22,113 nt of DNA from a virus: positions 1 through 22,113 of IMG/VR virus record IMGVR_UViG_3300031840_000789; one strand, written 5' to 3'. Position 1 is the stretch's first letter, and each line of letters opens with the position of its first letter. Shown piece after piece: positions 1-4,389 of the stretch. The position numbers and the translations under genes were made by a program. The notes beneath the pieces are model-generated. The model saw only the letters and a program-made list of their open reading frames with translations, was not told the origin of the DNA and did not search any database.

Positions 1-47
1 GGCCATAGGACATTCCTCTTACTTGCCGGAAGTGATAGCCTCGACCG

Positions 48-137
48 CGCTGTGTGCACGCAGCGGCGGGCCTTGCTTGGCAAGCGAGGGACTGCTCGCT
101 TGTCGGGGATCATCAGGTGCTGCAACACCTGATGGTC
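48..137 (+). promoter_or_regulatory. Structured leader with three successive hairpins upstream of the plus-strand gene
   Basis: Three inverted repeats sit one after another. The first is CGCTG at 48-52 with CAGCG at 61-65. The second is CAAGCGAG at 81-88 with CTCGCTTG at 95-102, perfect over 8 bp with loop GGACTG. The third is CATCAGGTG at 111-119 with CACCTGATG at 126-134, and it extends to 108-119/126-137 with one G-T wobble. A smaller alternative stem, CTTGC 72-76 with GCAAG 80-84, is mutually exclusive with the second hairpin. The last hairpin ends 26 bases before the ATG at 164. No T-run follows any stem, so these are not simple terminators. No convincing promoter was found in 1-163. Whether the structures act in RNA (leader, attenuator) or in DNA (operator) cannot be told from sequence. 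Confidence 0.5.
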
Positions 138-163
138 GCCCGTCTCTTCTACGAGGGAAGAAA

Positions 164-643
164 ATGGAATACTTGAGTCGTTTTGAAAAAAACCTGCTTC
201 AGGGCTTGTACTGCTTTGATTTGGTTTGGGGGGCGCCTGGAATCAAGCACCGCTTTCATTACACTCAGCTAAGGTTTTTACATGACTGCTGGTTCTGGCG
301 GTCCGTCCGACGGTGGCCCGCTGATCGCGCAATAAAAGCAACCGAGCCCTCCATGACCCGGACGGACGGAAAACGTGTCGCAGACAGAGCAGTCAACCGG
401 ATGACCGCCCAATCTGTGCAGTTACTGATCGAACGAGGACTTCTAGAGAACAACACAGCTAACCTGAGATATTTCGAGCTTCAACTCACCGGAGCTGGGA
501 TCGCTATGGCCCGCCGATGCAACACCTTTTGGGGTCGAGTCGGACTCTTTTACGAAGAACACCACGATGGAATTCTGGGCTTGTTCCTCACGGTTGCCGT
601 TTCCGCTTTAACCAGCTTAATCACCACCTATTTTCGCACCTAA
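164..643 (+). CDS. Small C-terminally membrane-anchored protein with a possible winged-helix segment; candidate phage cargo (moron) gene
   Basis: The predicted product has 159 residues and I do not recognise the family. The ATG at 164 is chosen because GAGGGAAG lies just upstream at a usable spacing; the frame is open further upstream, but that part lacks a good ribosome site. Residues 1-60 are rich in aromatic residues and arginine. Residues about 65-120 read like a winged helix: two helices, then a beta pair ending in LTGAGIAMAR. Residues about 136-156 form one hydrophobic helix ending in TTYFRT, so the protein is probably anchored in the inner membrane with its bulk in the cytoplasm. It is the only gene on this strand, it is visibly less GC-rich than the tail genes, and its stop is 4 bases from the stop of the convergent tail operon. 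These traits fit an independently expressed lysogeny gene. The function is unknown. Confidence 0.72.
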   Translation: MEYLSRFEKNLLQGLYCFDLVWGAPGIKHRFHYTQLRFLHDCWFWRSVRRWPADRAIKATEPSMTRTDGKRVADRAVNRMTAQSVQLLIERGLLENNTANLRYFELQLTGAGIAMARRCNTFWGRVGLFYEEHHDGILGLFLTVAVSALTSLITTYFRT

Positions 644-647
644 CTTC

Positions 648-881
648 TCAAACCTGCACCGTATACGCCGGCAGGTCCGGCGCCTCGCCCTGGATCTGCC
701 CATTCACGATGAACGCCTTGTTGCCGATGGCGACGCTGTCGCCGCGCACGCGGGTGCGGGTGCCGTCGCGCAGGGTGACGACGCTGGTGCCGTTGGGGCC
801 GATGTCGTAGACGGTGGCGACCACGCGGGACTGGTAGTTGGTGAGCTGCTGGAAGCGGCGCCAGGGGTTGACGGTGGCCAT
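648..881 (-). CDS. Small beta-rich tail-tip-associated protein, last gene of the tail operon
   Basis: The product has 77 residues. After a short N-terminal helix (NPWRRFQQLTNY) it alternates short beta strands and turns, with the pattern GTSVVTLRDGTRTRVRGD around residues 31-48 and a C-terminal segment ending APDLPAYTVQV. The look is that of a small OB-like or barrel fold. No enzyme motif is visible. The ATG overlaps the stop of the preceding hub-like gene as TGATG, so translation is probably coupled and the two products may work together at the tail tip. It is the final gene of the late operon, its stop facing that of the convergent plus-strand gene with 4 bases between them. Similar small proteins next to hub genes are familiar from phage genomes, but I cannot give a precise family name. 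Confidence 0.75.
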   Translation of the reverse strand: MATVNPWRRFQQLTNYQSRVVATVYDIGPNGTSVVTLRDGTRTRVRGDSVAIGNKAFIVNGQIQGEAPDLPAYTVQV

Positions 882-2695
882 CAGTGGATCTCCATGTCGC
901 TTCGGCGTTCGACGGCGAGGCGCTGGTTGATGCGCGGGGCGCCGTTGCCGGGGGCGCTGATGCTGTTGCTGAGCACCAGGCCGCGCCAGGTTTCCTGGCC
1001 CTGCACTTCGATGATGTAGCCGGGCAGGATGAGGCCGGGGCTCGCCTGTTCGTCCGTGATCTGGACGGTGAGGTTTTCCAGGGTGTGGGGGCCGCTGGCG
1101 GCGATCTCCTGCTTGCCCCGGGCGGCGCCGACGGCCTGATCGGTGATCAGGTCGTGGAGGATGTCCTGGCCAAGTTCGTCGCCGGCGGTGCCGGCGCGCA
1201 CCACTTCGACCTGCACGCCGGCGTTGATGCCGCTGACCCAGATGCCGTTGATGGGGGTGCCGGGAACGTGCTCGCCGTCCTGGTCCTCAATCATGGCGTC
1301 GTGGACCACGGCGTCGACGATGGTGCTGGCCCACTCCCAGGGGGCGTCGTAGTAGCGCGGCTGGATGTGGAGCGTGTCGGCGGCCGGGTCGGGCACGATC
1401 ACGGCGCCAGCGGCTTCACAGATGGCGCTGATGGCTTCGATCGGCGTTTTCTCGGTGTAGCTCCAGACGCCGCCGGGGATAGACCAGTCGGTGAAGCTGG
1501 GGTGCCAGACGATGGTGAAGCCCGTGTTCTGCAGTTCCGCTTCGGCGGACTGCTTGGCGTTCACCGGGCCTTCGTCGATGTGGCTGCGGCGCGGGGCATA
1601 GGGCGCGGCCAAGTAGCGGGTGCGGCTGCTGGCGTTGATGCGGTAGCGGTGGCCCACCGCGCGGACGCGGGACCACTTCTCGACCATGAACACCCAGTCG
1701 TGGCCGTTGATGGTGATGCGCAGCTCCCCCGGGTCCGGGTTGGGTTTCAGCAGGGCCATGGCCTCGGCGGTGAGCACGTCGCAGGTGAGGGACCAGGCGA
1801 ACGCATCGAGATCCAGGCCGAGCTGAATGTTGGCCACGTCGATGGGGGTTTCGCTGGGCAGCGCGACCACGTTGATCAGGTTCACGATCTGGTAGCTCTC
1901 TCTGATGTCCGGTTCGGGGGGCGGCGCTTTGATGGGGCCGTCGTAGTCCGGGTATTCGACGCCCACGTCCACCGGCCGCAGGCGCCGGCCTTCGCCCCAG
2001 GGGATCACGTTCTCGGCGCGCAGGGTGGTGCCCCAGCCCCAAGGGTGCCCGCTGGTGCGGTCTCGGGGGATGGGCGGCCGCGCCGGCGGCACGCGGGAGA
2101 ATTGGAAACTGGTGCTGGGGCGGTAGGCCTCGCCGGCGTCAAAACGGAAATCCGTTGGGCCGTACTGGTAAGCGACGCTGGCCGCCTCACGCCGCTGGCG
2201 CACGGTGCTCTGCCATTCGTCCACCACGGCGCGGTCGACCTTGAGCAGGCGGTTCCAGGAACCCAGCCAGGCGGCGTCCAGCCACAGCGACGCCGCGATG
2301 GCGCCGAAGCGGCCGGCCCGGCGATCGGTAGGCACCGGGCGCTCCCAGGGCAGCACCGCGCGCGGGTCCAGCGCCACGCCCCAGGCGTGCGCCAGGCCCA
2401 CCGCCCGGTCGGTGGCCACCGGCCAGCCCCACCGCTGCCAGCTCGCCGCGTCCACCGGCCGCGCCCGGGCCGCGCCGAAGCGCGCCGGCGCCGGATCCCG
2501 CGCCGGCAGCCAGCCCCACGCCGGTTCCGCCGCGGCGTCCACCGGCCGCCCGGGCGTCGCCGCGATCGCGCGGCGCACCTGCAGCGCGGGCACCGGCTGG
2601 TACGGCACGGCCGGCGCATAGCGGAACAGGAACGCCGACGACGGCACATAGGCGCCGCCGCCCAGTTCGAAGGCCGTGGACGGGATGTAAGGCAT
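881..2695 (-). CDS. Tail-tip / baseplate hub-like protein with a Trp-Pro-rich repetitive N-terminal region
   Basis: The product has 604 residues in two parts. Residues 1 to about 250 are low in complexity and hold 14 tryptophans, repeated WGW or PW motifs, and recurring short pieces such as YIPSTAF, YVPSSAF and YRPSTSF. Residues about 265-604 look like a regular globular domain: ESYQIVNLINVVAL, a W-rich beta stretch, GDWVF-like hydrophobic strands, and TPIEAISAICEAAGAVIVPD around the middle, as seen in gp27-like or gpD-like hub proteins that form the ring at the tail end. The gene starts 9 bases after the stop of the upstream gene, without a strong ribosome site, and ends in a TGATG overlap with the next gene. 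The hub role is inferred from position and from the second half; the function of the first half is unknown. Confidence 0.7.
   Translation of the reverse strand: MPYIPSTAFELGGGAYVPSSAFLFRYAPAVPYQPVPALQVRRAIAATPGRPVDAAAEPAWGWLPARDPAPARFGAARARPVDAASWQRWGWPVATDRAVGLAHAWGVALDPRAVLPWERPVPTDRRAGRFGAIAASLWLDAAWLGSWNRLLKVDRAVVDEWQSTVRQRREAASVAYQYGPTDFRFDAGEAYRPSTSFQFSRVPPARPPIPRDRTSGHPWGWGTTLRAENVIPWGEGRRLRPVDVGVEYPDYDGPIKAPPPEPDIRESYQIVNLINVVALPSETPIDVANIQLGLDLDAFAWSLTCDVLTAEAMALLKPNPDPGELRITINGHDWVFMVEKWSRVRAVGHRYRINASSRTRYLAAPYAPRRSHIDEGPVNAKQSAEAELQNTGFTIVWHPSFTDWSIPGGVWSYTEKTPIEAISAICEAAGAVIVPDPAADTLHIQPRYYDAPWEWASTIVDAVVHDAMIEDQDGEHVPGTPINGIWVSGINAGVQVEVVRAGTAGDELGQDILHDLITDQAVGAARGKQEIAASGPHTLENLTVQITDEQASPGLILPGYIIEVQGQETWRGLVLSNSISAPGNGAPRINQRLAVERRSDMEIH
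1961..2695 (-). repeat. Degenerate Trp-Pro peptide repeats in the hub-like protein
   Basis: This covers codons 1-245 of the 604-residue protein. The clearest pair is RPVDAA followed four residues later by WGW, at residues 50-62 and again at 79-91, 29 residues apart. A second pair is AWGVALDPRAVLPWERP (about 104-120) against PWGWGTTLRAENVIPWGEG (about 218-236), followed by RPVD at 240-243. The motif Y-x-PS-[TS]-x-F occurs at residues 3-9, 17-22 and 191-197. The repeats are at protein level; I did not find long exact DNA repeats. Confidence 0.6.
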
Positions 2696-2704
2696 GGTCG
2701 CAGC

Positions 2705-3445
2705 TTATAAGAAGGTGACGTCCACCGGCCCATGGGCCAGCGGGCGGAGGTACTCCCGGGCTTCCAGCGTGGCGGTGCCCACCTGCTGCTGGCCGGTGGT
2801 CCACCAGTCGGGCTCGGTGGCGGGCAGCTCGCCGCCGGTGACGACGCGGTAGACGTAGCCGTTGGGGGTGGTGGGCCGAATCAGATCGTCGACGACTACG
2901 TCAGACCCAGCTTCGAAGGTTTCACCGAGATCATCGGGGCACATCAGGTATACATCGGCGTCGGCTTCCACCAGCCCGGATATTGTGTAGCTTCCATCCG
3001 CAGCATCACTGACTGTCGAGCCAACAACTCGCCACTCGGAACCCTTCTTCTGCAAAGCAACCACCGCGCGGCTGATTGGCCCTACCGAACCGTCCGCGGA
3101 ACGCATCGAAATTACATCGCTCAGTTGTGCTGGGTCACCTTCGGGACCAGTGGCTCCGCCATCAAAACTGATCGTGACTGACGCTACCGGATCGCCAGAC
3201 GGCACCGCCTTAACTCCAGAACGCTCTCCGAGCCATGCGACGACGTTCGAGTTGGCCGCCGGGACATGAATACGGAAAAGAGGGAGACCAGCGAATCGCA
3301 AGCTGACCGCCCCAGTGGGCGTCAGTGCCACACCCCATACTGGCTCAGAAACCGATAAGCCGCCTTCGCGAACATCGATCTCAGCGATCTGAACAACCGA
3401 CCCTCTGTAGCCAAAGGTCGCCATATCGACGGACAGATCAATCAT
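2705..3445 (-). CDS. Tail-tip protein with a carboxypeptidase-regulatory/Ig-like domain; possible receptor-binding component
   Basis: The product has 246 residues. Residues 1-100 are beta-rich (SEPVWGVALTPTGAVSLRF, then VASVTISFDGG). Residues about 105-175 contain PISRAVVALQKKGSEW followed by DGSYTISGL, the signature of small transthyretin-like or CarboxypepD-regulatory beta sandwiches, which appear as adhesion or spacer modules in phage tails. The C-terminal part (NGYVYRVVTGGELPATEPDWWTT) resembles short modules found repeatedly in tail proteins. The start overlaps the upstream gene's stop as ATGA. Base composition changes inside the gene: the last 55-60 codons match the GC-rich neighbours, while the rest is clearly lower in GC. 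This suggests a recombination junction near 2885. A receptor-binding role is plausible but unproven. Confidence 0.65.
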   Translation of the reverse strand: MIDLSVDMATFGYRGSVVQIAEIDVREGGLSVSEPVWGVALTPTGAVSLRFAGLPLFRIHVPAANSNVVAWLGERSGVKAVPSGDPVASVTISFDGGATGPEGDPAQLSDVISMRSADGSVGPISRAVVALQKKGSEWRVVGSTVSDAADGSYTISGLVEADADVYLMCPDDLGETFEAGSDVVVDDLIRPTTPNGYVYRVVTGGELPATEPDWWTTGQQQVGTATLEAREYLRPLAHGPVDVTFL

Positions 3446-4385
3446 GGCCAGTCCTCAGGCTCCAAACTGATATAACCAAAGTGGTACTGGTTAGCGATCA
3501 GAACAACGGAGCGGCCATTCATGGATGTCTGGTCGCCAGTCCAGAGATTGTCTTGGTCCCGCAGATCGATCAATGCACCCGGCTCTACGGTTCCGATCGC
3601 GGAATACCACCCGGGCACCCGCGCGAAAAAGCGAGAATTTCGAGATAAAGCCACGGGATACAAAGGGAGCTGTGGCGTGCCTTCCAGTATCTGCGCATCC
3701 ACCACACGGTTAAAAAGACCAGGGTGCATTGTGAAGTCACCACTGGTTTGTCCGGTATTCACGGAGCCATCCGGCTCAATTAGCGAGATCAGTCCTTGGG
3801 AATCCTGGAAACTATTATCATTCGCTGCATCGACGTAGTACGCAGTATAGATAACAAAGTTTGGAACGGCTCTGGGGTCGATACCGGAACCCCACGGCAA
3901 CACCGAGCCCATGGCAAGACACAAGCAATTGTCCTCGCTCAGACCATCGCCGGTGAGCCCATCCGGCGGCGGCCAAATCAGCAATACGGCTGAAGCGTCA
4001 TTTGCTATAACGCACCAGCGCATCGATTGAATATCGTCGGTGTAGCGGAATGAGTTAGCGTAAACACCAACGTCACCCACCAGCTCACCAGACTCCCATC
4101 CTGTACCCAAGCGGGATTCCCTGAAGCTATAGTAAGTATGGTTAAGGGAAAGCTGGGCAACCCCCAGCTGCTCGCTGTTGGTTAGGACCAATTGCCCGTA
4201 GGTTCCACCCGCCGCCGGCGAGTAGTGCAGTTCGGCCCACCCGGCCGCGCTCTTCGACCCGTATCCATTCACCAGACAAGCGCGCAGGACTTCTGCGATG
4301 TAATTGATTTTGTCGTAGCCAGTATTGCCACCTGGGCGGCCCGGCACCCCAGCATCGTCCCAGCGGTATACAGTCGGCACAGCAC
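2885..4385. other. Lower-GC mosaic segment inside the tail-tip genes
   Basis: By eye, 60-base lines in this stretch have roughly 50-55% GC, whereas lines on either side (for example around 2400 or 5640) reach about 70%. The change is abrupt at the right edge, next to the start of the 315-residue gene, and lies inside the 246-residue gene at the left edge. Both genes remain open and overlap normally, so this is in-frame replacement rather than decay. No insertion-sequence ends or direct repeats were seen at the borders. Confidence 0.6.
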
Positions 4386-4389
4386 CCAT
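3442..4389 (-). CDS. Tail-tip structural protein of unknown family
   Basis: The product has 315 residues. It opens with VPTVYRWDDAGVPGRPG and a YDKINYIAEVLRACLVNGYG segment, a type of N-terminus known from phage proteins encoded after the tape measure gene. The body is beta-rich and aromatic-rich (SLNHTYYSFRESR, GYWYS-like patches) with no enzyme motif and no membrane helix. The ATG overlaps the stop of the 1164-residue gene as TGATG, and its own stop overlaps the next start as ATGA, so it is embedded in the coupled tail-tip operon. The whole gene is lower in GC than its upstream neighbour, which fits exchange by recombination. It may be a distal tail or receptor-facing protein; position is the only support for that. 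Confidence 0.65.
   Translation of the reverse strand: MGAVPTVYRWDDAGVPGRPGGNTGYDKINYIAEVLRACLVNGYGSKSAAGWAELHYSPAAGGTYGQLVLTNSEQLGVAQLSLNHTYYSFRESRLGTGWESGELVGDVGVYANSFRYTDDIQSMRWCVIANDASAVLLIWPPPDGLTGDGLSEDNCLCLAMGSVLPWGSGIDPRAVPNFVIYTAYYVDAANDNSFQDSQGLISLIEPDGSVNTGQTSGDFTMHPGLFNRVVDAQILEGTPQLPLYPVALSRNSRFFARVPGWYSAIGTVEPGALIDLRDQDNLWTGDQTSMNGRSVVLIANQYHFGYISLEPEDWP

What the first reader, a model, noticed from the sequence alone, without database searches (positions are those of the whole stretch)
1..643. Convergent lower-GC membrane-anchored gene at the end of the tail operon
The single plus-strand gene (164-643) is less GC-rich than the phage genes, has its own ribosome site, and ends 4 bases from the facing tail operon stop. 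Its product combines a possible winged-helix segment with one C-terminal membrane helix. Genes added at the tail end of prophages are often expressed in the lysogen and act in exclusion, defence or host change. Because the two convergent units leave no room for a terminator, late transcription should run antisense through this gene and could switch it off during lytic growth.
Basis: partly seen in the sequence, partly recalled or inferred. Interest (0 to 1): 0.55.

Follow-up and report, generated by a model that had tools for sequence, protein, structure and literature searches.

The report
Prophage cargo gene behind conserved RNA
A small added gene at the tail end of a bacterial prophage encodes a probable membrane-anchored protein and sits directly behind a conserved folded-RNA element that lies next to DNA methyltransferase genes in many phages and that we could not find in the public RNA-family library.

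Summary
The gene is real: window 164-643 (+), 159 aa, dN/dS 0.12, 52% GC against 66% for the window, its stop 4 bases from the facing tail stop. It is cargo between the last tail gene and a Dam-type methyltransferase near a tRNA-Thr. Related phages carry at this spot the same version, a second version at ~22% identity in an otherwise ~94% identical stretch (segment 111-649 exchanged), a different membrane gene, or nothing. Both versions model as winged helix plus C-terminal hydrophobic helix, at low confidence. No Pfam, PHROG or PADLOC family fits.

Unexpected: window 28-145, just upstream, is a structured-RNA element conserved beside DNA methyltransferase genes in many proteobacterial phages (27 of 29 pairs change on both sides in 92 distinct sequences), with no Rfam match. 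Four signals put the RNA on the strand opposite Dam, which is the cargo gene's strand: mismatch types, folding energy, a T-rich 3' flank and an extended -10 motif; model bit scores do not discriminate. Best reading: a phage small-RNA unit whose promoter and leader now drive the cargo gene in the lysogen. What the protein and the RNA do is inference.

The parts
164..643 (+). cargo gene, 159 aa (P0001): predicted winged-helix domain (about 1-134) and C-terminal hydrophobic helix (about 136-157)
153..160 (+). ribosome-binding site (GAGGGAAG)
   Evidence: read directly from the sequence
28..145 (+). conserved structured-RNA element; strand inferred from four signals (Dam-sense reading is the minus strand)
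33..41 (+). extended -10 promoter-like motif TGATAGCCT (TGnTAnnnT), near-invariant at this place in the family
48..65 (+). hairpin P4 of the element
   Evidence: coordinates read from the sequence
81..102 (+). hairpin P3 of the element (arms 81-88 and 95-102)
108..137 (+). hairpin P2 of the element; differs in sequence between the two cargo versions, pairing largely kept
138..150 (+). 3' strand of stem P1 (about 138-144, partner about 65-71) and weak T-rich tract after it
   Evidence: coordinates approximate
111..649 (.). segment exchanged as a block between the two cargo versions
648..881 (-). last gene of the tail operon (phrog_5076)
881..2695 (-). tail protein (phrog_6079)
1..6 (-). start of the divergent Dam-type methyltransferase gene, cut by the contig end; whole in L002-L004

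Best explanation
The gene is lysogen-type cargo (a moron) set into a fixed slot of a tRNA-Thr-linked temperate phage: between the last tail gene and a small conserved RNA unit that lies head-to-head with a Dam-type methyltransferase. Shown by sequence: the slot, its turnover, coding selection, and an RNA element with strong covariation that ends 18 nt before the start codon. Inferred: the RNA is made on the gene's strand from the extended -10 motif at 33-41, starting near 48; in phages without cargo it ends at the P2/P1 stem plus a T-rich tract as a ~100-nt small RNA; here read-through (the T tract is weak) makes it the 5' leader of the cargo mRNA and gives expression in the lysogen. The protein would be held in the inner membrane by its C-terminal helix with the winged-helix domain in the cytoplasm, acting most likely in exclusion of or defence against other phages (exchange of whole versions at one site fits specificity), less likely as a membrane-tethered regulator. 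During lytic growth, late transcription from the tail operon toward Dam would run antisense through gene and RNA.
For: Slot: related contigs run to tRNA-Thr; in nine distant loci (L029, L030, L031, L032, L040, L045, L072, L074, L085) the last tail gene is followed within about 225 nt by Dam; L122 and L125 differ by a 643-bp insert with a zinc-ribbon/membrane gene exactly between tail stop and RNA element. Two versions at ~22% identity: local alignment beats all of 2,000 shuffles, also without the membrane part; same order of structural elements. Selection. RNA: 27 of 29 pairs change on both sides, 84.0% of cells paired against 63.8% shuffled and 26-46% slid; on the structure-blind MAFFT alignment of 16, 22 of 29 pairs against 10.4 shuffled. 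Strand: A-C/C-A 231 against G-U/U-G 57, energy lower on the strand opposite Dam in 87 of 92; T-rich 3' flank in 54 of 92 against 14 of 92 further out and 14 of 92 on the other side; TGnTAnnnT in 67 of 92 against 0 of 92 in a control stretch. In the window clade and in L122 the cargo gene lies downstream of the RNA on that strand.
Against: No expression data. Bit scores of models built on either strand are similar, so the covariance models do not decide the strand; the Dam-sense strand is A/C-rich, which by itself raises A-C mismatches, and P1 is imperfectly aligned in the window's clade. The -35 region is poor (3.05 of 6 on average, 2.7 in the control), and a plain sigma-70 scan of window 1-900 found no promoter. 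The window's T tract is weak. The structure models are low confidence and the second version's membrane helix is marginal (1.55). The gene is known from only 3 other contigs of this version and 3 of the other. Purifying selection within each version gives no sign of diversifying selection. Three loci with other convergent cargo (L107, L114, L132) have no RNA element match, so cargo at this spot does not need it.
Confidence: 0.5

Rival explanations
1. The RNA element is a cis-acting leader of the methyltransferase mRNA (Dam sense), for example one that hides the ribosome site, and the cargo gene merely lies beside it with a promoter of its own.
For: The element lies on the methyltransferase's 5' side in 23 of 25 distinct matches of the two genome draws. 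A conserved AGCCTA segment is complementary to the ribosome-site region (run of 6 or more in 51 of 91; mean 5.43 against 3.78 shuffled).
Against: A site's own ribosome region pairs hardly better than those of other loci (5.43 against 5.25) and flanking-base covariation is weak (42 paired of 59, 37.5 expected). The window's own clade lacks the complementarity. Mismatch types, energy, T-rich flank and -10 motif point to the other strand.
Confidence: 0.25
2. The protein is a membrane-tethered transcription regulator: its winged helix binds DNA near the 28-163 region and sets the balance of cargo, RNA and Dam expression.
For: Winged-helix topology in both models; it adjoins a divergent intergenic region with strong palindromes.
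Against: The palindromes are stems of an RNA element that also exists in phages without the gene; the fold is low confidence and winged helices also bind proteins.
Confidence: 0.2
3. The element is mainly a DNA site (paired operators or a recombination site) rather than an RNA.
For: Stems are near-perfect palindromes in DNA, P4 above all; one boundary of the exchanged cassette falls in P2.
Against: P1 joins distant segments about 65 nt apart with compensatory changes; mismatch asymmetry between strands is not expected of a DNA site.
Confidence: 0.1

Closest known systems
Prophage morons / lysogenic conversion cargo at the tail end
   Same: extra gene between late genes and the attachment end, lower GC, opposite strand, replaced or absent in relatives
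   Different: sits behind a conserved structured RNA element; two versions ~22% identical at one site
Winged-helix proteins (MarR-type regulators, STIV/SSV F93, MukF/MukE)
   Same: winged-helix order of elements; best Z 8.5, rmsd 3.2, 87 residues aligned
   Different: no sequence family match; C-terminal hydrophobic helix; such Z values are common by the tool's own note
Phage Mu com-mom region
   Same: some loci have a Com-like zinc-ribbon ORF (PF10122) between element and Dam
   Different: no element match in Mu 33500-36717; Mom is annotated as an adenine modification enzyme of another kind
Small antisense RNAs of temperate phages such as P22 sar and P1 c4 (recalled, no call)
   Same: short structured RNA made against a neighbouring phage transcript
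   Different: no Rfam match for this element; it lies beside methyltransferases

Membership tests
moron / lysogenic cargo gene | present, absent or replaced at one site in otherwise collinear phages | tested here: met
moron / lysogenic cargo gene | own transcription signals and expression in the lysogen | not testable with these tools
   extended -10-like motif only; no expression data
superinfection-exclusion protein | membrane location and block of phage entry | not testable with these tools
   hydropathy peak 2.02; no functional test; no PADLOC match for P0001
winged-helix (MarR-like) fold | winged-helix topology | tested here: inconclusive
   models at pLDDT about 60 with that order of elements; Z up to 8.5; best Foldseek E 0.016
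ToxR/CadC-type membrane regulators (features recalled) | one membrane helix followed by a periplasmic C-terminal domain | tested here: not met
   the hydrophobic helix lies at the very C terminus, nothing follows it
any Rfam 15 family | score at or above the family's gathering threshold | tested here: not met
   gathering scans of 11 and 14 sources found only tRNA and tmRNA; E-value scans of three elements gave only sub-threshold matches
structured RNA (general) | compensatory changes beyond shuffled and slid controls | tested here: met

The most novel reading that the evidence does not exclude
Window 28-145 belongs to an undescribed family of phage small RNAs, encoded head-to-head with DNA methyltransferase genes of two enzyme families across proteobacterial prophages; it ties DNA modification to prophage state by acting on the methyltransferase leader, and its promoter and leader have been captured to express exchangeable membrane cargo in the lysogen.
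Probability: 0.35. Interest if true: 0.8.

Novelty: new variant of a known kind. Interest (0 to 1): 0.62.

Why it matters
A structured RNA tied to phage DNA methyltransferases of unrelated families would give a handle on an open question: how temperate phages time DNA modification and keep it in check in the lysogen. It occurs beside dam genes in E. coli prophages, so it can be tested in laboratory strains. It would also explain how cargo pointing against the tail operon is expressed here: from the RNA unit's promoter.

Tried and rejected
Allele-specific operator: the differing palindromes at 108-137 first looked like co-varying binding sites; they are the variable P2 stem of an RNA family also found without the gene. 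Dam-leader switch with a hidden ribosome site: kept as a rival, weakened. Homologous genes beside Dam in L039, L167 and L168: E 0.33, and the frames read as spurious translations across the element region. Deciding the strand by model bit scores: inconclusive. PDB profile search: best E 0.039, a zinc-dependent transcription regulator, not significant. BFVD search: best E 0.01, unnamed. Genome, phage and plasmid searches for the protein found no relative, nor did the alignment-based search of 12 distant records. Regulation by methylation of GATC sites near the palindromes was considered and not pursued. L267 has the element without a methyltransferase within 1.5 kb and is counted as an exception. 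Literature: nothing on this RNA in the listings, and the one paper sought by title was not found; passages of PMC10085705 were read. The library lacks most subscription papers, so this does not show that the RNA is unpublished. Moron literature: listing only, nothing used.

Full report
What is there. The window is a 22,113-base IMG/VR contig and its left end is the contig end. ORF 164-643 (+) encodes 159 residues and faces the tail operon across 4 bases. It has no match in Pfam, PHROGs or PADLOC and only a meaningless one (E 0.12) in NCBIfam. Three other IMG/VR contigs carry the same version at 94-100% identity. They run on leftwards to a Dam-type methyltransferase (PF02086), a 76-aa ORF, an SRAP-family gene (PF02586) and a tRNA-Thr. 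A tRNA near the contig ends suggests an attachment site; no second att copy was sought. dN/dS is 0.116, so the protein is in use.

A slot with turnover. Searching with the last tail gene brought L013, L014 and L017. At the same place these carry a 154-aa protein only ~22% identical to P0001. The similarity exceeds every one of 2,000 shuffles, with or without the membrane part, and the two models share one order of elements. L002 and L013 are 94-95% identical on both sides, and the alignment breaks off at the equivalents of window 110 and 650, so a whole cassette was exchanged. L003 and L004 have a further 1.28 kb after the gene, with another membrane gene and a 187-bp duplicate of DNA from the other side of Dam. 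In nine distant loci Dam follows the last tail gene directly. L122 and L125 show another clean case: 643 bp with a zinc-ribbon/membrane gene present or absent between tail stop and RNA element. Marinobacter phage AS1 has a lipoprotein and a second exported-looking protein there, and Pseudomonas phage Lodos has a lysozyme-like gene and two others on the tail strand.

The protein. Both models (pLDDT 61.4 and 59.7) give helix, strand, two helices, two strands, two helices and a C-terminal hydrophobic helix. The structural second look lists mainly winged-helix proteins, up to Z 8.5 for P0001 and 7.2 for the second version. The tool warns that such values are common, so this is support, not proof. 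Function is inferred: a membrane-anchored lysogen protein, exclusion or defence first, regulation second.

The leader. The 1-163 region was expected to be a plain promoter. Comparing 136 distinct stretches upstream of Dam showed a recurring element. A covariance model from 16 members (R1) matched 56 of 69 and 65 of 71 sources at E below 0.01 (the 16 training loci are among them). 95 sources, picked from those that matched, were aligned (A7; 92 distinct). 27 of 29 pairs change on both sides; 84.0% of cells pair against 63.8% after shuffling and 26-46% when slid. A7 was fitted to the structure. The MAFFT-only alignment A6 of 16 still gives 22 of 29 pairs with both-side changes against 10.4 in shuffles, and RNAalifold run on A7 finds the same helices. 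The window copy is 28-145 (R2: 83.8 bits; the near-identical L002 and L003 copies are in that model). Its own lowest-energy fold forms P2 and P3 clearly, z -4.1 and -4.3 on the two strands. Rfam 15 has no match.

Where it occurs. In an even draw of the class, 8 of 229 genomes matched, and of the phylum, 14 of 398. The centre genome G023, chosen because it has the element, is in both, and only 9-15 candidates per genome were scored there, so these are lower bounds. The 25 distinct matches lie beside a D12 methyltransferase in 22, an N6_N4 methyltransferase in 1 (L246), a contig end in 1 (L265) and no recognised methyltransferase within 1.5 kb in 1 (L267). A further copy met in another genome (L252) precedes an N6_N4 methyltransferase. 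In E. coli, 531 of 5,426 genomes have DNA similar to a stretch with a Citrobacter copy and the start of its dam gene; for some rows the match covers only dam. The two regions opened carry the element before dam with no annotated RNA.

Which strand. In the Dam-sense reading of A7, A-C/C-A mismatches number 231 and G-U/U-G 57. In P4 the only departures from Watson-Crick pairs are 18 A-C/C-A and 2 U-G. On the other strand those A-C cells are G-U wobbles. Folding energy is lower on the other strand in 87 of 92, the z-score in 67 of 92. The other strand's 3' flank is T-rich in 54 of 92 against 14 of 92 further out. Its 5' end carries TGnTAnnnT in 67 of 92 against 0 of 92 in a control stretch. A/C richness of the Dam-sense strand, imperfect P1 alignment in the window's clade, a poor -35 region, and nearly equal bit scores of models from the two strands count against certainty. 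I put about two in three on the strand opposite Dam, which in this window is the cargo gene's strand.

Reading. The cargo gene starts 18 nt behind an RNA unit that has its own promoter-like motif and, in most relatives, a terminator-like end. The simplest account is that the cargo is transcribed by read-through from that unit. What the RNA does, in trans or against the dam leader, and what the protein does, are not shown.

Noticed in passing
L003 1088-1274 and 2945-3131: A 187-bp segment is duplicated (90% identical) on both sides of the dam/cargo region, the second copy near the start of the 1.28-kb insert that carries another membrane gene (L003 3208-4080).
   Followed up: partly
L037 4865-5074, L189 5799-6050: Com-like zinc-ribbon ORFs (PF10122) lie between the RNA element and Dam in some loci; phage Mu's own com-mom region has no element.
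   Followed up: partly
L002-L004 left ends; L045, L050, L160, L170, L234 downstream of Dam: tRNA or tmRNA genes lie near the Dam end, which suggests that the unit sits beside attachment sites.
   Followed up: no
L014 8096-9397: This close relative has a different membrane gene and an unlike SRAP-family gene in place of the usual one, so the stretch beyond Dam also turns over.
   Followed up: no
window 2705-4389: Two tail-region genes are also low in GC (0.556-0.609) and may be an exchanged part.
   Followed up: no
L267 1501-1617 (-): An RNA element without a methyltransferase within 1.5 kb downstream in Dam sense.
   Followed up: partly
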